Source: Bdellovibrio sp. CG22_combo_CG10-13_8_21_14_all_39_27 (GTDB taxonomy: Bacteria; Bdellovibrionota; Bacteriovoracia; Bacteriovoracales; Bacteriovoracaceae). From it: a DNA stretch of 62,550 nt. A program made the translations under genes and the position numbers. The first letter of the stretch is position 1; every line of letters begins with the position of its first letter. Positions 51,309 through 62,090 of the stretch are shown piece by piece. A model generated the notes under the pieces. It was not told the DNA's origin. It made no database searches and saw only the letters and a program-made list of their open reading frames with translations. The stretch spans positions 1 through 62,550 of the forward strand of contig PCTW01000003.1 in NCBI GenBank assembly GCA_002786715.1, written 5' to 3'.

Positions 51309-51575
51309 ATGAAAACAAAAAGTTTGCTAGCATTTTTTCTATTATCCAGCTTACTTATTTCTTGCTCAAAAAATGGAGGCACTCCCAGTGACGGGATTAA
51401 AACCTCAAGTGGTGCCATTATTAGTGAGCAATCCGAAGTCGTCTCAGCGCTTAATCAAGCACAAGGCTCTCAAGGAGCCTACCAGTTATCTGCTCAAGAG
51501 ATCGAAGAGCTCTTTAGTAGCGGCACTATCACTGAACAACAAAAACAAGAACTCCTAGCTTTGGTTCAACCATAA
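51309..51575 (+). CDS. Small lipoprotein upstream of the RHS gene
   Basis: MKTKSLLAFFLLSSLLISC is a lipoprotein signal with lipobox LISC. The mature part of about 70 residues is Ser/Gln-rich and ends EQQKQELLALVQP with a short amphipathic helix. The longer frame from 51210 lacks the signal. It ends one base before the possible first ATG of the giant RHS protein, so the two are probably co-expressed and the lipoprotein may help secrete or anchor it. Confidence 0.65.
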   Translation: MKTKSLLAFFLLSSLLISCSKNGGTPSDGIKTSSGAIISEQSEVVSALNQAQGSQGAYQLSAQEIEELFSSGTITEQQKQELLALVQP

Positions 51576-51597: not shown

Positions 51598-54500
51598 ATG
51601 CGGAACGTTTGCCGAGTCCTCTTACTTCTTTGTTTCTCTACAACTCTTTGGGCCGATGGTGGTTTTAATTTCCCTAATCATAAGAAGGGATTTTGGATTA
51701 CTCCAAAAGATAATCCAAATAGCCTCGTGCCGCTCGCTTCAGGTGATAAGAAAACCTTTGAACTCGATCTTTGTGTTGTAAAATGGGGCGAAGAGAACAA
51801 GAAAGAGCGCTGTCAAAAAGTTCCTGATACTAAACTCGAATTTCATGCCTATTTTCCTGACAAGCTCCATGATGTCACAAGTCAAATTCAAGTCACAAAA
51901 TCAAAAGATAAAAAATCTTGGAAAGTCATTTACCAAACAGAAGAGTTAAAAGCGAGCGATCTCAATCAGTTCTCCTTCATTATTGGTTCGGTAAAATCTT
52001 CAGCGGAATCACTTTTAAAAACTCAGGCAAAGTTTGAAAAAAGAATCTTAGAGCTGGCCAAACTCAGAGCGAAATTTATAGATCGGCAGAATAAAGAGAA
52101 ATACATAGCTTACATCGATAAGATGATCGCCCTATTAACAGACGTCAATCATCGCATCGATCTGGCCCTTGAGTCTTCACCCGATGTTCTCGCTGAGATT
52201 TCACTTCCTCTTCAAGTTGATAATAATCTTGCAGCACCCTTTTATTATGCTTCCAATTTTTCAGGTCAGAAAATGGCCATGAAGCTCACTCATGGATCAG
52301 CGATTGAAGGCGAATCAGTTGTGCTTGATGCAACAGTTACGAACCTTTCACATCTCGACTTTAAATTTCCATCGATTGAAAAAGAAGAGCGAGAAGAAGG
52401 CGAAGAAAAAGAGCACGACGGACAAAACAACTACAATTATTCAATTAGCTTTAACGGCCAAAAAATTGTACAGAAAAACATGATGGAACTCGCCTTTGGT
52501 GAATCTTGGAGCGAGTCCAAAATCTTATCAAAATTAAATCCGAACGATACCAATGACATTAGTTTCATTTTATCAAAAATTCACCGCGAAGATGATGCCG
52601 ATAAAAATGATAATAAAAAGGACAAAAAGAAAGATAAGAAAAAAGAAAAAGATGAGGATGAAAAGAGATGGGGAAGCCTTTATAGTACAATTCCTGTTGC
52701 ACCTGATGCTGTTACTCCAGTCTTCACTGAAGTTCAACCTGATTCAAGTATTGAGTATGCTCAAAGTTTTCCAAGCATCAGAGCAACCCTATCGGATTCC
52801 TTTGGTCGTATCAATCCTGACAGCATTGCCTTAAAAGGCTCAGCTATTCTCGTTGATGATACAAATACTGCGCGAGATTTTTCTTCAGTACTTATTAAAA
52901 ATAAAATCCAAGACGGTCAAAGCTATTTACTCTCAAGTGAAGTCAACCCACTTGAAGAAGGACTTTGGACATTAACATTGAGAGGAGCTGACTACGCCGG
53001 AAATTATGCCGATGATGTTGTTAGGAATATTCGCATTGACAGGACTGCTCCTATTATTAATCTTTCTTCGCAGGACAATATTCTTACTAACCAAAATATT
53101 TATTCACTTAATGCCATCATCTCGGATTTGTCACCAGTATCACTACAAATATTTCAAAATGGACAACTTGTTTATTCAACTGAGCTTGTTCAGGTTTCAT
53201 ATGATGCAACTCTTCAAGAGGGTGTAAATTCATTTCTCATTAAGGCAACGGATGCAGCTGGGAATATCACACAAAAAAATCTCTCTTCCATAATCCTTGA
53301 TACGATTCCTCCAGCTCTGTCCATAACAACACCGCCAGAAGATCTCATCACAAATGATAAATCTTTAATCATTTCAGGAAGCGCTAATGAAATGCTTAGC
53401 TCAATTTCATTGAACTCAAATTCTCTTAACCTCGCCCCTGACAAGTTAAAATTTGATGGAACATTTGAGCTTTCAAATTACGGCCAATATGAACTAAGTT
53501 TTAGCGCAACTGATTTAGCTGGAAATTCAAGCTCAATAATAAAAAAAGTAACTCGCAATTCACCTCCTATTGCCAATTTAACTTTGCCCGTCAAGGTTGA
53601 AGAGAAACGTCTCTTTGCATTTAATGCTCAACTCTCGTCTGATAGCGATGGCTCGATTATTGAATATAAAATAGAAACTGGTGATGGCGAAATTTTAAGC
53701 TCGTCTTCACCCCTAATAGAATACGTCTATAAAAATTCTGGGACTTATACAGGTAAACTCTTTGTAACAGATAATAATGGCGCCTCGGCATCAAAGTCTT
53801 TTATCGTTAATGTACTGGCCAATAATCCACCTTTCGCTTCATTTACGACAAACCCATCAATCGGCAAAGCACCTTTACTTGTCACGCTGAATGCCTCTGC
53901 TTCGAGTGATCCAGATGGAGACTCGTTAACCTATTCATGGGAATTTTCAGATGGAACAATGGCAAGCGGTGTAAGTTTGCAACATTCATTTACAAATATA
54001 GGAAATCAATATGCCAAACTTACAGTTATAGATGAAAGAGGCTTACAAAGTTCATCTCAAGTCGATATTACTGTCGAAAACCCAAATCTGTCACCAATAG
54101 CTTCAATGAATTGTAATTTAAGTGATGCCACTTTGAATTGTGTTAGCACTTCATCAGATCAAGATGGAACTATTGTATCGAGTAAGTGGCTCGTTGATGG
54201 AAAGGAATTTACTGCGTCCTCAATACACTATGAATTTCCAGGTAGTGGCAGCTATACAATTGTTCTCGTGGTTCAAGACAATGCTGGAGCCGAGTCAACT
54301 GCCACCCAATCGTTTACAGTCGTCAAAGCAAATGCAATTGCGTTATTAGAAGAATTTGAAAATAAGATAATCATCCCGCCTGATCCTTCTTCTATCTCTA
54401 CACCTATTGATGGGATCAAATGGTCCAATATTTTTGATCAGGTCAACTTTCTCTTTGCAGGAAGCAACCCTATCCAGCAAATGGTCATCCCAGAAACTAT

Positions 54501-57500
54501 CGATAAAGCTAGAACATGCATTATCAAAGGCAAGTTTGTTGATTCTCTAGGTAATCCAATCAAAGGTGTAAAAGTTGAAATTACAGATAGATCAGAATTT
54601 GGTTACACTATTTCTAGAGCAGACGGAGAATTTGACTATGTCGTCAATGGTGCTGAAAGATACAATCTCTACTATTCAATTCCTTCTTATGTTGGAAATT
54701 ATCAGTCCGTAGAGTGTCCTTATAATGACTTTTTGGTTTTAGATAAAATTGTGCTTTCTAAAAGAAATCCCATCGCCAAAATAGTTAATTTTGCAAGTTC
54801 AAATTCAACAATGATTGAGGAAAGTACTTCGAAAATAAAAATTTATATTCCAAGCAATACACCGGCAAAAATAGTCAAGGCAGATGGAAGCGAGATCCCT
54901 GTCAGTAATGCAAATTTAAGAATTTCGGCAAGGGATACTTCCAATGATCCTGTTGTTAGAGAAGGAGAACTTTTAGCTGATGTAGAGATTACACTTGACG
55001 AAGAGATTTTGAATAATGGACGTGAAGTAAAATTTGACCAAGCAATTCCTCTCTATCTTCCCTATTCTTCATCAGAATCAGTGGGCACAATCGTCGATGT
55101 TCATTATTTCAATCGTCAAACCAATCAAGATCAGGTCCTTGAATCAAATGGTCTTATTATTTCAAAAATCGGTTCTAACAATGGCAGGGCCATGCTTGAT
55201 ACGAATGGAGACGGTTCTGCTGAGGATCTGGCATTTTTAAATGCACTAGGAATTTCTAGTGAAGAATTAATAAGAATAGATAGCAGTTTCAACAATGGAG
55301 AAAAGTTCATCAGGGCTTCAACTTATCACTTAACAAGCTTTAAGTTTTACATTGGAGACTCAGAAATTCCTTTTTACATAGTCGTCAATTTAAATTCAAA
55401 TATTGCTCCAACTCTTTCAAGTCTTTCGACTCTTTCTGCGACCTATGGAGTAACTTGTTCATCAAGAGGAACATTTCAAGACGGAAACAAAGAGATATTT
55501 TATTGTAATTATGGATCTTCTCCAAAATTCGTAAGACCATCTCCTCCTACTCCTCCGATAATTGGAAGGTGGTTATTTGAAGAGAATTTCGCACTAATTA
55601 ATTCTCCAATTGTGAATGCTGATTATAGATGTGGCTCTATAATAGATGTTCAAAATCAGACTTTAGGAGAAAGCATTCCCATCGTTGGGACAGATTTTAA
55701 TCTTTCCTACAAAAGTGATCGAGTTGATGGGATGTTAGCTAAAAATCAAATCCGAATTCCATTGAGTGCTGGAGAATTACCAAACAACTTAGAAAAAATT
55801 CTTCTCAGAGTAGATATTGCTGGACGAAGATTTGATTATGATTTCTCACCCCTAAGCGATCCTGAGTACATTTTTACTTGGGATGGTCTCGATGGCTATG
55901 GACGTAAATTGTTTGGAGCTCAGAAAGCAACTATCAAATTAGGATATTCATTCACTAATACTCAACCCAAGATAGCTTGGTCAGGTAGTAAAGTTATAGA
56001 CATTTCAAAAAACTTTTTAAATGACAATAAAAAACTTGGAGGCTGGAGTCTCGACGTCCATCATAACTATGACCCTATTTCAAAGACATTGTATAAGGGA
56101 AATGGAACAGAGATAAATTCATCACCTACTCAATTTAATAAGTATATCGAATACAAACCTCACAAGTTTAATTTCGTAAGTCCCTACTCGAATCTCGTCA
56201 ATTGGAAAAGCATTCCTTTTCCAAATGACGATAGACCGGCAATTAAACTATCAGACATCTATTTCGATGGTTTTGTTTCAAACCCATTGTTTATGAGCAA
56301 TGGAAACACATATTATCTATTCTACATATACAATGAAAATTTTTCGAGAGCATTACTCAAGATTGATAAAAATGAGAATGTGACCTTTCTTGTTTTAACA
56401 TTAAGTTTTGCATACAAACTAAAGCTTCATAATGGTATTGACGAAAGCTACATCACTGCACACGGAGCTCATATTCTTGATTATATCAATTTTATAAGAC
56501 TCGGCAACCATCAAGAGATTTTCATAATCAACGACAGTGCTATATACAAATATCAGAATAATATAATAACAACAATTTTTCCGAATTCAAAACGCGGCTT
56601 ACCTCTAGCAAGAACAAATAGCGGAGTTGAACTTAAACTTAAAAAAATTCTTGAGTTGAAAGTTGGTCCGAACGATGATTTTTATGCTTATGTCCAATAT
56701 GATTGGCCAGGATTACCCGACTATCCAGTACTCTATAAGTACCCTTCCAACGGGGATGAAAATCAAAGAGTCGCTATAACAAATGACAATTGGACACAAC
56801 AAACACAACGTGCGTTTTCTTTTAATGACATAGATGGGAAAAAATTATCAAATTTTTTAGACTTTCGTTTTATTGATTATATTATTTCTAAAAATAATGA
56901 AGTGTTCATGATTACGGGGTTTAACCTAGATGCTTTTCTTTACCCCCAAGAACACAGAATAATAAAAGTTGATCAGAGTGGGATTGTTTCTAATGTTATA
57001 GGAGGAGGAACAGATAAATACGAAGGAATCACCTCTTCAGAGTTTAAATTATCACTTGCCGCGTTTAAGCCTTTATACTCTTTGTTAGGTAATTTTGATT
57101 TTAATAATTCGTCGGATCTAATGGCTTTTGATAAAAACGACAATCTTGTTTTCTTTGATGATAGTTCAAGTTTAAAAGAATCCTATTTAAAACACCTTTC
57201 TCCTTCGGGAAACATTACATCCGTTGCGACGACTCCACAATCTAAACTACAAGGGACACTCGAAAAAAATCTTTTTGGCGACATTCAGATATACTCCCCT
57301 CAGGACTTAAGCCTTAAAGTTTTTAATCAATTACCATCCATACTTGTCGGATCAGATGAATTTATGATCCCTTCTACGAATGGACAAGAAGGCTATGTTT
57401 TCAATTTTAAGCAACAACATATTAGAACCATAAATCCAATGACAGGAGAACTTATTAGAAAATTCATTTATTCAAATGCTGGTCTCGTGACTGGAATTGA

Positions 57501-60408
57501 GGATAAGTTTGGAAACAAAACTTCATTTCTTGAAAATGGAAGTGGAGAGATTGGCAATATCATTTCGCCTTTTGGGCATACTACAAGCTTAGTCTATGAC
57601 GGTAAGTACCTATCCCAAATTATTAACCCTGAAAATGCGACGACCTCACTTACCTACACTGGAAATGGATTACTTTCAATTTATACATTGCCAAATGGCA
57701 ATTCTACTTTTTTTACTTATGATCAGCTTGGAAGACTCCTGAGAGATACTAACTCAGCCGGAGGATACCAAGATTTTCAGAGACAAGCGACTCCCAATGG
57801 AGTGAATGTTCAAGTTAGCGACGAAAAAAGTTCTCAATCGATCTATGAGACAATATATCAATTGAGCGGCGAAAAAAGGATGAAGAATGTAGATAAATTT
57901 GGACATACGACAGAGACTATTTACTATCCTAATGACGTAGAAAATAAAAGTTACTCCAATGGTTTAACGGTCTCAAAAAAACTTAAACGATCTAAACTTT
58001 TTGGGAGTCTTGTACCCCTTGTCGAGCTACAATCAATCAAAACCCCAGGAGGACTTGAAAATAGATATGCAGAAGATTTATCTATTACGCTTCCAAGTAA
58101 TAACGCTGACCCGTTTACTTTCCTGACCTTGATCAGCACTTCCTATATAAATGAAAAAACTTACAAGACAACTTATGATAAAGTAGCAAAGAAAATAACA
58201 AATCGCTCACCTGCAGGACGAGAGACTTATAGTTACTTAGATTCAATGAAAAATATTACCTCATCTCAAGTCTCTGGCTTGCTTCCTCTTGAATACGAGA
58301 GAAATATCAAAGGTCAGATGACATCCATTCTTCAAGGCGAGAGAAGCAGCACGATGACCTATGATTCAAGTGGAAATATTTCTTCACTGTCGCAAGGTGG
58401 ACAAACAACTTTATATGAATACGACTTGGTTGGCCGAGTAACGAAACAGATCCAACCTGATGGCGGCGAAATCTTTTATTCCTATGACTTAAATGGAAAC
58501 CTCACTTCTGTCGTTCCTGCCGGTCGCCCCGCTCATCAGTTTGTTTATAATTCACTCGACTTTATTAGTGACTATATTCCTCCTGAAATCTTAGGACTGG
58601 CCGCAACGACTCAGTACTCGTACACTCCTTCAAAAAAGTTGCTCCAAGTGAATCGACCTGATAGCAAAACGATTCTTTACAACTATCATCCTCAAACAGA
58701 TCGTCTGCAGGGATGGGTTAGCTCAGATGATGAAGTCAATCTAACCTACAACAGCTCAACCGGGCAATTATCAAGCATTATCAAAGACAATTTTAATTCT
58801 CTCTCCTATTCTTACGATGGCCCTCTTGTGACATCAATTACTCAAGCAGGCGACATGACCTCTCTCCTTTCATTCGCCTACAACAATGACTTTAGACCGA
58901 TATCATTAAGTCTTAATAACAACCTCAGCATAAATTATTCCTATGACAATGATGGTTTATTAACAGGCGCGGCTTCAGAAACTCTCACTCATTCACCTGT
59001 CAACGGCCTTCTCAGCTCGACTCAAGTCGGTGTTGTTCGCGAAGATTATTCCTATACTAATTATGGCGAAGTGAGCAGCTACACGGTTAAAGTTGGATCA
59101 ACTCCAATCTTCACTCAAAACTACACGAGAGACTTGTATGGCAGAATTATGTCGCTTGATAATAATTCTGAAACAATGACCTTTAGTTATGATTCCGTTG
59201 GGCAATTATCCAGCGTCAGCAACAATTCAAATACAGTTGCAAGTTTAGTCTATGATCAAAACGGTAATCGCCTTGATTACAACGGCATCCTTGGAACGTA
59301 TGATAATCAAGATCGTCTTATCACTTACGGTGACTATTCATTCACTTACAATGGTAATGGAGATACTCAAACCATTAGCGACTCAACAGGGACTACGACC
59401 TTAGACTATGATGTTTATGGAAATCTTCTCACTGTAAGTTTGCCGAGTAAAAATATCAGCTATGCCATTGATCCTCTCAATCGCCGCATCGGCAAAAAAG
59501 TAAACGGCTCACTCACTCAAGGTTTCGTCTATCAAGATCAACTCAATCCTATCGCCGAGCTTGATGGCTCTGGTAACGTGATCTCTATCTTCGTTTACGC
59601 CAGCAAATCAAACGTCCCCGACTACATGGTTAAGAACGGCGTTAACTACAAAATTATTTCTGATCATCTCGGAAGCCCTCGACTTGTGGTCAATGCGAAT
59701 GATGGTACAATTGTTCAAGAGATGAGTTATTCAGAATTTGGTGAAGTTGTCACCGACACAAATCCAGGCTTCCAACCCTTCGGCTTCGCCGGAGGTCTCT
59801 ACGATCTCGACACCGGACTCGTGAGGTTTGGTGCGAGAGATTACAATCCTGTCACGGGTCGGTGGATGCAAAAAGATCCATCAGGATTTAATGGAGGCGA
59901 CACAAACCTTTATCGCTATGTCCACAATGATCCAATTAACTTTTTCGATCCAACTGGAAACTTTGAAGTGCCTTCCTGGGCAATCGACGCTGGCGCAGGA
60001 GCTGCCTCATCTTTAACATTTGGTTTATCTGATTATGCAATAGATGCTGCTGGTTATGGAAGTTCAGTTAACAGAAATTCCACAGCCTATAATGCAGGCT
60101 ACATTGCAGGTACAGCAGTTTCTGTAGCAAGATTAGGTTATGCTGTAACGGCCAAAGTAGCGTCCCGTCTAGCATCTTCAGGTGCCGCAGCTTCAGCAGC
60201 TCGAACAGCATTTAAAAATCGGTTTGGCCTAGGACTCACAAAAAATATAAGAAAGCCAAACTTAGCAGGACTGACAGACGCGCAGCTGAGGGCATCTGCA
60301 GGTCGAACCAATCCGTTCGTAAATGCATGGGCAATAGGTAATCTCACCACTGCAGGAGGAAATGCTACTGATCCATTTTTTTCTGGTGGTGTTTGTGGTG
60401 GTGATTGA
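51598..60408 (+). CDS. Giant secreted RHS/YD-repeat protein, teneurin-like
   Basis: About 2,936 residues. A signal peptide (MRNVCRVLLLLCFSTTLWA) comes first, then a unique N-domain with two Lys/Glu-rich linkers. Ig-like repeats (about 370-655) and three PKD domains (655-910) follow, then a carboxypeptidase-regulatory-like domain (973-1058). The RHS N-plug has WDGLDGYGR near 1428. An NHL-like segment (about 1535-1911, IIKVDQSGIVSNVIGGG) is followed by YD repeats (1931-2728) and the core signature YRYVHNDPINFFDPTGNF. A 148-residue tip ends it. This is the polymorphic-toxin plan: a cocoon holding a C-terminal toxin released by self-cleavage. The ATG at 51598 has AAGGA; an earlier ATG (51577) would extend the signal. 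Confidence 0.9.
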   Translation: MRNVCRVLLLLCFSTTLWADGGFNFPNHKKGFWITPKDNPNSLVPLASGDKKTFELDLCVVKWGEENKKERCQKVPDTKLEFHAYFPDKLHDVTSQIQVTKSKDKKSWKVIYQTEELKASDLNQFSFIIGSVKSSAESLLKTQAKFEKRILELAKLRAKFIDRQNKEKYIAYIDKMIALLTDVNHRIDLALESSPDVLAEISLPLQVDNNLAAPFYYASNFSGQKMAMKLTHGSAIEGESVVLDATVTNLSHLDFKFPSIEKEEREEGEEKEHDGQNNYNYSISFNGQKIVQKNMMELAFGESWSESKILSKLNPNDTNDISFILSKIHREDDADKNDNKKDKKKDKKKEKDEDEKRWGSLYSTIPVAPDAVTPVFTEVQPDSSIEYAQSFPSIRATLSDSFGRINPDSIALKGSAILVDDTNTARDFSSVLIKNKIQDGQSYLLSSEVNPLEEGLWTLTLRGADYAGNYADDVVRNIRIDRTAPIINLSSQDNILTNQNIYSLNAIISDLSPVSLQIFQNGQLVYSTELVQVSYDATLQEGVNSFLIKATDAAGNITQKNLSSIILDTIPPALSITTPPEDLITNDKSLIISGSANEMLSSISLNSNSLNLAPDKLKFDGTFELSNYGQYELSFSATDLAGNSSSIIKKVTRNSPPIANLTLPVKVEEKRLFAFNAQLSSDSDGSIIEYKIETGDGEILSSSSPLIEYVYKNSGTYTGKLFVTDNNGASASKSFIVNVLANNPPFASFTTNPSIGKAPLLVTLNASASSDPDGDSLTYSWEFSDGTMASGVSLQHSFTNIGNQYAKLTVIDERGLQSSSQVDITVENPNLSPIASMNCNLSDATLNCVSTSSDQDGTIVSSKWLVDGKEFTASSIHYEFPGSGSYTIVLVVQDNAGAESTATQSFTVVKANAIALLEEFENKIIIPPDPSSISTPIDGIKWSNIFDQVNFLFAGSNPIQQMVIPETIDKARTCIIKGKFVDSLGNPIKGVKVEITDRSEFGYTISRADGEFDYVVNGAERYNLYYSIPSYVGNYQSVECPYNDFLVLDKIVLSKRNPIAKIVNFASSNSTMIEESTSKIKIYIPSNTPAKIVKADGSEIPVSNANLRISARDTSNDPVVREGELLADVEITLDEEILNNGREVKFDQAIPLYLPYSSSESVGTIVDVHYFNRQTNQDQVLESNGLIISKIGSNNGRAMLDTNGDGSAEDLAFLNALGISSEELIRIDSSFNNGEKFIRASTYHLTSFKFYIGDSEIPFYIVVNLNSNIAPTLSSLSTLSATYGVTCSSRGTFQDGNKEIFYCNYGSSPKFVRPSPPTPPIIGRWLFEENFALINSPIVNADYRCGSIIDVQNQTLGESIPIVGTDFNLSYKSDRVDGMLAKNQIRIPLSAGELPNNLEKILLRVDIAGRRFDYDFSPLSDPEYIFTWDGLDGYGRKLFGAQKATIKLGYSFTNTQPKIAWSGSKVIDISKNFLNDNKKLGGWSLDVHHNYDPISKTLYKGNGTEINSSPTQFNKYIEYKPHKFNFVSPYSNLVNWKSIPFPNDDRPAIKLSDIYFDGFVSNPLFMSNGNTYYLFYIYNENFSRALLKIDKNENVTFLVLTLSFAYKLKLHNGIDESYITAHGAHILDYINFIRLGNHQEIFIINDSAIYKYQNNIITTIFPNSKRGLPLARTNSGVELKLKKILELKVGPNDDFYAYVQYDWPGLPDYPVLYKYPSNGDENQRVAITNDNWTQQTQRAFSFNDIDGKKLSNFLDFRFIDYIISKNNEVFMITGFNLDAFLYPQEHRIIKVDQSGIVSNVIGGGTDKYEGITSSEFKLSLAAFKPLYSLLGNFDFNNSSDLMAFDKNDNLVFFDDSSSLKESYLKHLSPSGNITSVATTPQSKLQGTLEKNLFGDIQIYSPQDLSLKVFNQLPSILVGSDEFMIPSTNGQEGYVFNFKQQHIRTINPMTGELIRKFIYSNAGLVTGIEDKFGNKTSFLENGSGEIGNIISPFGHTTSLVYDGKYLSQIINPENATTSLTYTGNGLLSIYTLPNGNSTFFTYDQLGRLLRDTNSAGGYQDFQRQATPNGVNVQVSDEKSSQSIYETIYQLSGEKRMKNVDKFGHTTETIYYPNDVENKSYSNGLTVSKKLKRSKLFGSLVPLVELQSIKTPGGLENRYAEDLSITLPSNNADPFTFLTLISTSYINEKTYKTTYDKVAKKITNRSPAGRETYSYLDSMKNITSSQVSGLLPLEYERNIKGQMTSILQGERSSTMTYDSSGNISSLSQGGQTTLYEYDLVGRVTKQIQPDGGEIFYSYDLNGNLTSVVPAGRPAHQFVYNSLDFISDYIPPEILGLAATTQYSYTPSKKLLQVNRPDSKTILYNYHPQTDRLQGWVSSDDEVNLTYNSSTGQLSSIIKDNFNSLSYSYDGPLVTSITQAGDMTSLLSFAYNNDFRPISLSLNNNLSINYSYDNDGLLTGAASETLTHSPVNGLLSSTQVGVVREDYSYTNYGEVSSYTVKVGSTPIFTQNYTRDLYGRIMSLDNNSETMTFSYDSVGQLSSVSNNSNTVASLVYDQNGNRLDYNGILGTYDNQDRLITYGDYSFTYNGNGDTQTISDSTGTTTLDYDVYGNLLTVSLPSKNISYAIDPLNRRIGKKVNGSLTQGFVYQDQLNPIAELDGSGNVISIFVYASKSNVPDYMVKNGVNYKIISDHLGSPRLVVNANDGTIVQEMSYSEFGEVVTDTNPGFQPFGFAGGLYDLDTGLVRFGARDYNPVTGRWMQKDPSGFNGGDTNLYRYVHNDPINFFDPTGNFEVPSWAIDAGAGAASSLTFGLSDYAIDAAGYGSSVNRNSTAYNAGYIAGTAVSVARLGYAVTAKVASRLASSGAAASAARTAFKNRFGLGLTKNIRKPNLAGLTDAQLRASAGRTNPFVNAWAIGNLTTAGGNATDPFFSGGVCGGD

Positions 60409-60442
60409 AGGAAAAAACTAAAGGAATAACGAGGAGATAAAT

Positions 60443-60775
60443 TTGTTTGAGATTAATTCAAAATTATCTATGCATGATAATAAACTGGCCATAGTTTTTA
60501 AAGGCCTAGGGAATGCTCGTAAAATTATAGGAGTTGTGAAGCGTGACTACGGTGGTAAGGGTAGTTGGAAAAATTATATTCCATTTTATTACCTATTTTT
60601 CGATCATTATCTAAAGGAATTTATGGTTGATGGAAAAAAATTTGTTATAGAACCTGATGGGCATACGTACATGGATGGTCTTGCGTTTTGGACAGACCAA
60701 GACAATGAGGTACTTTTTTATAAAATTGTCGAAACGCTAAAAGAAAAGGTGAACCTAACTGTGGAGAAGGAATAG
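60443..60775 (+). CDS. Candidate immunity protein for the RHS tip
   Basis: The 110-residue protein is soluble, with mixed charge and aromatic patches (SWKNYIPFYYLFFDHYLKEF). It begins with TTG, decided by GAGGAG six bases upstream. It starts 35 bases after the RHS stop. A small soluble protein in this place is the usual position of an RHS immunity protein. No family is recognised, so immunity is inferred from position only. Confidence 0.6.
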   Translation: MFEINSKLSMHDNKLAIVFKGLGNARKIIGVVKRDYGGKGSWKNYIPFYYLFFDHYLKEFMVDGKKFVIEPDGHTYMDGLAFWTDQDNEVLFYKIVETLKEKVNLTVEKE

Positions 60776-60859
60776 TTGCCTTACTTTTGCCAAAAAATTC
60801 AGATGAATTCTTAAAATTTGAAGCTATTGGCAGTAACACATTGGCAACGAGGAGTGAAT

Positions 60860-61219
60860 ATGGGCTTAAATTTATCTTCAAAATCTTATGAGTTTGATAA
60901 TAAAACAATCGAAGATGAGTTAGTTGACAATAAAATTGGAAACTACGCACTTGGTTACGTAAAAGAAAACACTTTTTACGTAAGGTATGTTGGAAGGGCA
61001 GACACATGTTTGAAAGAGAGGCTAAAGGATCATGAGCATATGGCTGATGACAAATGTAAGAGGTTTAAGTTCGCTTATACTGACAGTGTTGAAAATGCTT
61101 TCCAAAAGGAATGTGCAAACTTTCATGAATACAGTCCTGCATTAAATAAAATTCACCCTGATTCTCCAAATGGGTTAGATTTAGAATGTCCAATAGAAGA
61201 TTGTGATAATGATGAATAA
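60860..61219 (+). CDS. GIY-YIG-like nuclease domain protein
   Basis: The protein has 119 residues starting MGLNLSSKSYEFD, with GAGGAG six bases before the ATG. GNYALGYVKENTFYVRYVGR fits GIY...YIG, then CLKERLKDHEH supplies the Arg and His. FQKECANFHEYSPALNK gives the catalytic Glu and Asn. All key positions of the family seem present. It may be an orphan toxin module displaced from an RHS tip, or an independent nuclease. Its acidic C-terminus (ECPIEDCDNDE) is unusual. Confidence 0.6.
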   Translation: MGLNLSSKSYEFDNKTIEDELVDNKIGNYALGYVKENTFYVRYVGRADTCLKERLKDHEHMADDKCKRFKFAYTDSVENAFQKECANFHEYSPALNKIHPDSPNGLDLECPIEDCDNDE

Positions 61220-61288
61220 TTCAGTTGATCTCAATGCAAAAATACTCAAGCGATTTATGAGTGAGCTAGGAAGCATCCTAAAACAACT

Positions 61289-61341
61289 CTCACTCCCATA
61301 AGCATCGACACCGGGGGGATACCTTGCGAGTTTGGAGTGAG
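61289..61341. repeat. Inverted repeat with 37-nt loop
   Basis: CTCACTCC (61289-61296) and GGAGTGAG (61334-61341) can pair, with a G-rich loop (ACCGGGGGGAT). CCCAT and ATGGG just outside offer a competing pair. It lies between the GIY-YIG gene and the integrase and may be an RNA structure or an attachment-site feature. Confidence 0.4.
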
Positions 61342-61396
61342 TGTCTCATGGGTAGGCCTACATTCTTTTAAACAACTGCTTTTATATTTCTTGTTG

Positions 61397-61489
61397 ACCC
61401 AATTGGGAAAAGAATTCTCTTAACTAAGACCACATTCTGACATCCCAAATGGGAACTAAGATTTTTGAGCTTTAAGTTCCCAATTGTGA
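61397..61489. repeat. Three related CCCAATTGGG-type motifs
   Basis: ACCCAATTGGGA (61397-61408), TCCCAAATGGGA (61443-61454) and TTCCCAATTGTGA (61477-61489) are similar palindromes spaced 35-46 bases. The second and third also pair as TGGGAACT/AGTTCCCA (61450-61457, 61475-61482). They lie just behind the integrase gene, so integrase arm sites or a repressor operator are likely readings. Confidence 0.45.
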
Positions 61490-61517
61490 CCCTATTTATA
61501 ATAGATATTCAGAGTAA

Positions 61518-62090
61518 CTAGAAGTCATATGGCGAGGGATTAGAAACATCGTGGGATCTAAGATTTCCATAGAGATCAACTGTCATCGCAATTGTTTTAT
61601 GACCTAATATGGCCTTGAGCTGATACATCTCTCCACCTTTCTTTAAAAAGTTATAAGCAAAGGAATGTCTTAGAGCATGGCATCCCCAATCCTTTCCCGG
61701 GATTGGATAAAGTCTTTTAAGTCTCGTCACCATTCGATGAATCTTTTGACGGTGAAGCTTTCTTCCTTCCTCATTGATAAAGACGTATTGGTGTTTTAAA
61801 TCTTTAAAGCGTAGAAATTGAAGAAGACTCCTAAGCCCCTTGGACATTTCTATACTACGGGATTCTCCATTCTTCGTTTCTCTAAATGTAAGTCTATTGG
61901 TGGCAAAGTCCACATCCGTCCAGCATAGATTTGCCACCTCTGATCTTCTTGCTCCCGTTTGAACGATGGCGTAGAGAAAAGGATAAAGAATATTAGGACT
62001 ATATTTGAAAGCTCCATCTAGCATTTCTTTAAGCTCCTCAGCAAGGATTTTACCTGTAGAAAGAATTAAAAAGCGAAAAGAAATTATCAT
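61518..62090 (-). pseudogene. Tyrosine recombinase, catalytic domain only
   Basis: The 190-residue frame contains a full phage-integrase catalytic domain. The first Arg is in TGARRSEVANLCW, the HxxR box in HALRHSFAYNFL, the later His in LGHKTIAMTVDLYG and the Tyr in the same segment. The N-terminal SAM-like DNA-binding domain of about 100 residues is missing; upstream sequence on the minus strand shows no trace of it. The gene is most likely a remnant of an integrative element, though a short recombinase cannot be excluded. The RHS and GIY-YIG genes next to it support an accessory region. Confidence 0.7.

What the first reader, a model, noticed from the sequence alone, without database searches (positions are those of the whole stretch)
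51598..60408. Very large teneurin-like RHS protein with Ig, PKD and NHL-like parts
The YD shell with preceding NHL-like segment and the stretch HIRTINPMTGELIRKF, resembling the teneurin linker, suggest a bacterial relative of teneurins. A Sec-type signal peptide, not a type VI PAAR domain, is at the front, and Ig/PKD domains point to surface display. It may deliver a toxin to competing or prey cells.
Basis: partly seen in the sequence, partly recalled or inferred. Interest (0 to 1): 0.7.

Follow-up and report, generated by a model that had tools for sequence, protein, structure and literature searches.

The report
Bacterial teneurin-like toxin in Bdellovibrionota
The gene encodes a complete bacterial relative of the teneurin brain receptors, a protein cage expected to hold a small toxin on the surface of a Bdellovibrionota bacterium; this protein family was described in 2026, but comparing relatives shows that the cage and the toxin almost always carry a matching cysteine each, and that toxin arrays of this kind in its lineage end in their own recombinase gene.

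Summary
The 2,936-aa ORF (51598-60408) has a Sec signal peptide, Ig-like and three PKD domains, then the full teneurin order: TTR, TIP, FN-plug, NHL propeller, YD-shell, and a short unmatched C-terminal domain (CTD) with a unique small gene 35 bp downstream. Sequence, predicted fold and phylogeny place it in the bacterial teneurin-like proteins (TLPs), a toxin family published in 2026 (PMC13018210). It is a new member, from a phylum (Bdellovibrionota) absent from that paper's list, and not on the branch that holds animal teneurins. Both autocleavage sites of the solved TLP are conserved.

Two results go further. (1) C1352, beside the plug cleavage site, and C2940 in the CTD are the only cysteines in the last 1,600 residues and match the C719-C2216 disulfide of the solved TLP; across 46 complete TLPs, 45 have the plug cysteine and 44 have both. 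The paper reports the bond for one protein. (2) A truncated tyrosine recombinase lies 1.5 kb downstream. Its homologues sit convergently at the 3' ends of Rhs/TLP toxin-tip arrays (24 of 30 neighbourhoods), and in four arrays a leftover tip stub ends at one codon position (RYYDPxT|GR). This suggests integron-like toxin exchange, which earlier papers said lacked a known integrase.

The parts
51598..60408 (+). Teneurin-like protein (TLP) gene; frame open from ATG 51577, preferred start ATG 51598. Residue numbers in this report count from 51577 (2943 aa)
51309..51575 (+). Small lipoprotein gene (88 aa, lipobox LLISC) ending 22 bp before the TLP start; no homologue in the fetched loci; possibly co-transcribed
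   Evidence: lipobox read by eye
51598..51654 (+). Sec/SPI-type signal peptide
   Evidence: read by eye from the translation
51655..53016 (+). N-terminal region without a Pfam match; its first part is similar to the N-terminus of another Bdellovibrionota TLP (L079, 28% over 127 aa, E 3e-10)
53068..53559 (+). Ig-like domains (Big_13 at residues 498-576; Glucodextran_B at 579-661)
53554..54327 (+). Three PKD domains (about residues 660-917)
54502..54756 (+). Teneurin TTR-like domain (PF25020)
54760..55596 (+). TIP (teneurin insertion protein) domain region between TTR and FN-plug, 19-30% identical to other Bdellovibrionota TLPs, aligned with the solved TLP
55630..55638 (+). C1352 next to the conserved G1353-S1354 autocleavage site (aligned with G723-S724 of BiTLP)
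   Evidence: site defined in PMC13018210
55609..56121 (+). FN-plug domain (PF24329 core at residues 1393-1469)
56122..57321 (+). NHL-type beta-propeller (approximate limits)
57322..59958 (+). YD-shell (cocoon), ending in the Rhs core
59836..59958 (+). Aspartyl autoprotease motif: R2754, D2767 (DPSG), D2791 (DPTG), aligned with R2103, D2116, D2140 of BiTLP
   Evidence: residues defined in PMC13018210
59836..59856 (+). Codons RDYNPVT, equivalent to the inferred cassette crossover site in related arrays
59959..60405 (+). CTD (149 aa), probable toxin, no family match; only cysteine C2940 at 60394-60396
60443..60775 (+). Candidate immunity gene (110 aa), GAGGAG ribosome-binding site, found in no other searched relative genome
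60860..61219 (+). Small ORF with weak GIY-YIG nuclease similarity (E 0.005, below the curated cut-off)
61518..62090 (-). Tyrosine recombinase remnant: catalytic half present, N-terminal domain missing; 59-61% identical to the array-terminal integrase of L030

Best explanation
This is a teneurin-like protein (TLP), a Sec-exported polymorphic toxin of a Bdellovibrionota bacterium. Shown by sequence and predicted fold: the exported chain has Ig/PKD domains, TTR, TIP, FN-plug, propeller and a YD cocoon, and carries both autocleavage motifs of the solved Bacillus TLP. Inferred from that structure: the chain cuts itself at G1353|S1354 in the plug and after the DPxG motif at the end of the shell, so the ~15-kDa CTD lies loose but enclosed in the cocoon. 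Inferred here: C2940 near the CTD's end forms a disulfide with C1352. [quoted passage not shown] pulling that fragment could draw the toxin out end-first, and reduction in the target cytosol could free it. The next gene probably protects the producer. The toxin end is exchangeable; in this lineage, related arrays end in a dedicated tyrosine recombinase that probably helps exchange toxin-immunity cassettes. The window's own copy is truncated, so its array is probably frozen.
For: Pfam teneurin-specific models. PDB sequence ranking: BiTLP 1e-164, teneurins 1e-75 to 1e-56, T6SS Rhs 1e-31 and weaker, Tc C subunits 1e-8 and weaker. Shell model, core pLDDT about 95: BiTLP TM 0.82 at 1.9 A, teneurins 0.75-0.77, T6SS Rhs 0.35-0.63, Tc at most 0.43. 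Plug+propeller model: BiTLP first (E 1.5e-16), then 15 teneurin entries. Tree: branch with support 100 separates TLPs, teneurin and window from 8 Rhs proteins of the same family. Cleavage residues conserved. Cysteines: none between C1352 and C2940; 45 of 46 TLPs have a Cys in the 12 residues before the plug cut, against 0-12 of 46 in nine of ten nearby windows; 44 have both; in six, including this one, these are the only two; the two TLPs without a CTD Cys are those that lost the Ser/Cys of the cut. Unique downstream gene. Published TLP toxicity and immunity.
Against: No experiment on this protein. The CTD has no family match and no confident model (pLDDT below 40), so toxicity is by analogy. 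In 27 of 46 TLPs a further cysteine at +5 (GSIIxC) could pair with the plug cysteine instead. C1352 and C2940 could not be put in one model (1,200-aa limit). Non-TLP Rhs orphan tips of this family also often end in a cysteine (25 of 35 in the last 10 residues), so a terminal Cys is not specific to TLPs. The propeller model has mean pLDDT 67 only. The 46 TLPs are related, so counts are not independent.
Confidence: 0.75

Rival explanations
1. The protein is mainly a surface adhesin or recognition protein, as in animals, used in prey or kin contact, and the CTD is not a toxin.
For: Large Ig/PKD part; the CTD is short and matches no known toxin; animal teneurins act as adhesion receptors (PMC5851990, abstract).
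Against: Both autocleavage sites are intact, which would be pointless for a pure adhesin; a unique small gene follows, as in published toxin-immunity pairs; a sibling array in the same GTDB family carries a recognised toxin domain (Ntox33 in an L030 orphan).
Confidence: 0.15
2. It is a T6SS-type or Tc-type Rhs effector that only resembles teneurins.
For: All share a YD/Rhs shell and the DPxG protease.
Against: Signal peptide and adhesion domains at the front, no PAAR or VgrG match; shell fold and tree side with TLPs and teneurins; plug, TTR and TIP are present.
Confidence: 0.02
3. C1352 and C2940 are not bonded to each other; the plug cysteine serves catalysis, metal binding or another bond.
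For: 27 of 46 TLPs have a third cysteine at +5; the paper notes possible metal density at the plug site.
Against: The equivalent pair is bonded in the BiTLP structure; in the window and five other TLPs no third cysteine exists in the superfold or CTD; CTD cysteine and cleavage site were lost together.
Confidence: 0.2
4. Toxin tips in this lineage are exchanged by RecA homologous recombination over the shared core, as proposed for enterobacterial Rhs, and the integrase is a bystander.
For: Proposed mechanism in PMC2935791; homology in tips continues about 100 bp past the inferred crossover; no stub was found in most arrays, nor in the window.
Against: One integrase subfamily lies convergent to Rhs tips in 24 of 30 neighbourhoods, and 5 of the 6 others end near contig edges; in four arrays a stub beside the integrase ends at the same codon position; tip homology starts abruptly about 24 bp before GRW in several arrays.
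Confidence: 0.35

Closest known systems
BiTLP, Bacillus inaquosorum teneurin-like protein (PDB 9IFO/9PT5; PMC13018210)
   Same: Order TTR-TIP-FN-plug-NHL-YD-shell-CTD; shell TM 0.82; same plug G|S site, same R/D/D protease residues with the same spacing, an equivalent cysteine pair, downstream gene
   Different: Gram-negative Bdellovibrionota host; Ig/PKD N-terminus with its own N-terminal region; unrelated CTD; adjacent lipoprotein gene; locus ends in a recombinase remnant
Metazoan teneurins 1-4 and Ten-m
   Same: TTR, FN-plug, NHL, YD-shell; shell TM 0.75-0.77
   Different: Animal proteins are receptors with EGF repeats and a Tox-GHH domain outside the shell, and lack TIP and the DPxG cut (PMC13018210); they group with Bacillota/Chloroflexota TLPs, not with the window
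T6SS Rhs effectors (RhsP, Tse5, Tse15, Tre23, RhsA)
   Same: YD cocoon and DPxG autocleavage of a C-terminal toxin
   Different: No signal peptide, TTR, TIP or NHL; poorer shell fit
rAID arrays of Bacteroidales (PMC12247911) and XerC/D-linked polyimmunity loci (PMC3482391)
   Same: A tyrosine recombinase linked to arrays of short conflict genes
   Different: Those arrays hold orphan immunity genes only; here the cassettes are Rhs toxin tips with a following gene, and the inferred junction lies inside the toxin reading frame

Membership tests
[quoted passage not shown]
   Pfam FN-plug and TEN_YD-shell over cut-off; propeller model best matched by TLP and teneurins; shell TM 0.82. Blade number not settled
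Bacterial teneurin-like protein (TLP) | TTR and TIP domains before the plug | tested here: met
   TTR_TEN1-4 1e-17; TIP region aligns with BiTLP (i-Evalue 1e-31 for residues 769-1252) and 19-30% with other TLPs
Bacterial teneurin-like protein (TLP) | Groups with TLPs in a tree | tested here: met
   support 100 against family Rhs; position inside the TLPs not resolved
Bacterial teneurin-like protein (TLP) | DPxG-X-DPxG aspartyl autoprotease with conserved Arg | tested here: met
   R2754, D2767, D2791 match R2103, D2116, D2140, same spacing. Cleavage itself not testable
Bacterial teneurin-like protein (TLP) | Plug cleavage at G|S | tested here: met
   G1353-S1354 aligned. Cleavage itself not testable
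Bacterial teneurin-like protein (TLP) | Short variable CTD that is toxic | not testable with these tools
   149 aa, no family match; toxicity needs an assay
Bacterial teneurin-like protein (TLP) | Immunity gene immediately downstream | tested here: inconclusive
   110-aa unique ORF 35 bp downstream; function not tested
Metazoan teneurin | Tox-GHH/ABD C-terminus, EGF repeats, shell in the metazoan branch | tested here: not met
   No such Pfam match; tree
T6SS Rhs effector | PAAR or VgrG at the N-terminus, no signal peptide | tested here: not met
   signal peptide
Integron-like toxin-tip array (idea of this report) | Intact recombinase plus repeated sites in the window | tested here: not met
   Recombinase truncated; no second site in 60406-61525. 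An integrase with a tip stub is present in L030, L032, L187, L190

The most novel reading that the evidence does not exclude
In Bdellovibrionota, Rhs/TLP toxin arrays are integron-like: a dedicated tyrosine recombinase at the 3' end moves toxin-immunity cassettes through a ~20-bp site inside the codons for RYYDPxT of the Rhs core, so a new toxin is joined in frame to the existing delivery protein and the old one is shunted downstream. The window's locus would be a frozen example.
Probability: 0.45. Interest if true: 0.78.

Novelty: new member of a known kind. Interest (0 to 1): 0.55.

Why it matters
The TLP adds a phylum known for predatory bacteria to a class from which animal teneurins derive. 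The near-universal plug/CTD cysteine pair gives a testable release model for a family whose delivery the describing paper calls unresolved. The recombinase-linked arrays bear on a question open since 2009: how Rhs toxins swap their ends. Jackson et al. [quoted passage not shown] Kirchberger et al. wrote that no evidence existed for integrase-aided effector-immunity insertion (PMC5361080). Here such an integrase co-occurs.

Tried and rejected
T6SS or Tc effector: rejected by domain content, fold and tree. Direct ancestor of animal teneurins: not supported. Naming the CTD toxin: no match in Pfam at E up to 10, no homologue in the fetched loci beyond a chance hit, disordered in the model. Family match for the immunity gene: none. 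A cassette-site repeat in the window's own downstream region: best match 8 of 21 mismatches, as in shuffles. Cys pattern as a TLP-only trait: weakened, since orphan tips of non-TLP arrays also often end in Cys. A first regex-based cysteine count undercounted the plug cysteine (36 of 46) and was replaced by an alignment-based one. The 15-sequence alignment was too divergent for a genome scan; a 5-sequence one worked.

Full report
What is there. The ORF is intact and encodes 2,943 aa from ATG 51577, or 2,936 aa from ATG 51598, which has the better ribosome-binding site. After a Sec-type signal peptide come an N-terminal region without a Pfam match, Ig-like domains, three PKD domains, a teneurin TTR domain, a FN-plug and a teneurin YD-shell, all by curated models. 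Against the PDB the best sequences are the Bacillus inaquosorum teneurin-like protein (9PT5/9IFO, E 1e-164), then teneurins (1e-75 to 1e-56), then T6SS Rhs proteins (1e-31 and weaker) and Tc C subunits. A 586-residue plug+NHL model (mean pLDDT 67) matches the same TLP first and 15 teneurin entries next, ahead of other propellers. The shell model (core pLDDT about 95) fits the TLP at TM 0.82 and 1.9 A, teneurins at 0.75-0.77, T6SS Rhs at 0.35-0.63 and Tc shells at 0.43 or less.

Known class. PMC13018210 (Nat Commun, February 2026) describes these TLPs: a variable adhesive N-terminus, TTR, TIP, superfold, a CTD of about 15 kDa enclosed in the shell, two autocleavages, a C719-C2216 disulfide in BiTLP, and downstream immunity genes with tested examples. 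Every feature that can be read from sequence is present in the window, including G1353-S1354 and R2754/D2767/D2791 with the same spacing as in BiTLP.

Where it lies. The host is therefore in Bdellovibrionota, a phylum not in the paper's list of six. The teneurin TTR model passes its cut-off in 19 of 369 genomes of the phylum. The genome scan found 252 relatives; the 80 kept come from Pseudomonadota, Myxococcota, Bacillota, Acidobacteriota and also Verrucomicrobiota, Chloroflexota, Gemmatimonadota, Planctomycetota, Methylomirabilota and others, by record title. In a tree of the second half of the shell, TLPs, teneurin-4 and the window are separated from 8 Rhs proteins of the window's family with support 100. 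Teneurin-4 groups with Bacillota and Chloroflexota TLPs (support 99), in line with the paper; the window lies outside that group. Its exact position is unresolved, and two odd Rhs-like rows, one with a very long branch, fall inside the large group.

Cysteine pair. The window protein has no cysteine between C1352 and C2940. In BiTLP, C719 just before the plug cut is bonded to C2216 in the CTD; the paper's main text mentions this bond for BiTLP only. In an alignment of 46 complete TLPs, 45 have a cysteine in the 12 residues before the plug cut; neighbouring 12-residue windows have 0 to 12, except just after the cut, where a second conserved cysteine (GSIIxC, +5) occurs in 27. In all, 44 have a CTD cysteine, 24 of them within the last 10 residues, and all 44 have both. 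The two that lack a CTD cysteine (L153, L157) are the two whose cleavage site has lost Ser or Cys. In six TLPs, including this one, the two cysteines are the only ones in the superfold and CTD. [quoted passage not shown] This pull-tab reading is inference. The caveats are the +5 cysteine, the relatedness of the sequences, and the frequent terminal cysteine in Rhs orphan tips of the same family.

Toxin and immunity. The CTD (149 aa) has no match and no confident model. The next gene, 35 bp downstream with a GAGGAG site, is unique to this genome among 116 searched, typical of immunity genes. A third small ORF resembles GIY-YIG nucleases weakly.

Recombinase-linked arrays. A tyrosine recombinase remnant (61518-62090, minus strand), with its catalytic half but without its N-terminal domain, follows. 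Its closest homologue (59-61%) ends the locus of the other TLP of the family: in L030, TLP, then an overlapping 381-aa gene (weak S41-peptidase match), then two orphan tip + following-gene cassettes (one tip with an Ntox33 toxin domain), each bounded by 64-139-bp repeats (84-96% identical), then the intact integrase. Homologues at E up to 1e-20 occur in 18 of 125 family genomes, and at 1e-30 in 22 of 369 of the phylum, including other families. In 24 of 30 neighbourhoods an Rhs tip lies convergent to the integrase within 5.2 kb (the window is counted with its own tip, 1.55 kb away, which lies outside the stretch scanned as L029); 5 of the 6 exceptions have a contig end within 2 kb of the integrase. 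Given a few Rhs loci per 3-4 Mb genome I expect about 1% by chance (estimate, not computed by shuffling). In L030, L032, L187 and L190 a truncated tip copy next to the integrase ends at the same codon position, RYYDPxT|GR, though the DNA sequences differ between array types. In several arrays the shared sequence of the tips starts abruptly about 24 bp before GRW. The simplest reading is a recombination site inside the core codons, just downstream of the catalytic Arg and upstream of both catalytic Asp. Jackson et al. [quoted passage not shown] Kirchberger et al. 2017 saw no evidence of integrase-aided insertion; rAID arrays hold immunity genes only; literature searches found no such Rhs system. 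In the window the integrase is broken and no second site is found, so the claim rests on relatives. Orphan tips also follow TLPs in other phyla, but without this integrase.

Verdict. The added value lies in the new phylum, the family-wide cysteine pair and the recombinase-linked arrays; the last two are computed here and untested at the bench.

Noticed in passing
window 61518-62090; L030:5796-11169: Tyrosine recombinase subfamily convergent to the 3' end of Rhs/TLP toxin-tip arrays; truncated in the window, intact in relatives
   Followed up: yes
L190:443-10449: Array of nine Rhs tips ending in the integrase and a truncated tip stub
   Followed up: partly
L033 (G012:C6:565000-580000): Eleven tandem Rhs tips in 15 kb without this integrase in view
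   Followed up: no
L036 (G055:C4): A shorter TLP-like protein that goes from a plug-like segment into the shell with no propeller between them; its shell falls inside the TLP group
   Followed up: no
L078 (G141:C2:1-9000): TLP frame broken into 1324-aa and 741-aa ORFs, a probable pseudogene or assembly error
   Followed up: no
G000:C81 (L035): A second, non-TLP Rhs protein of 3373 aa in the same genome with regularly spaced cysteine pairs in its N-terminal third
   Followed up: no
TLP family, plug site: In some TLPs the residue after the cut is Cys instead of Ser (GCII), as expected for a self-cleaving nucleophile; the GSII/GSVI motif resembles the SEA-domain cut site (from memory)
   Followed up: partly
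window 51309-51575: Small lipoprotein gene just upstream of the TLP, without homologues in the fetched loci; could help anchor it
   Followed up: partly
L029:2547-13838: A flagellar gene cluster follows the toxin locus on the same contig, so the host is probably motile
   Followed up: no
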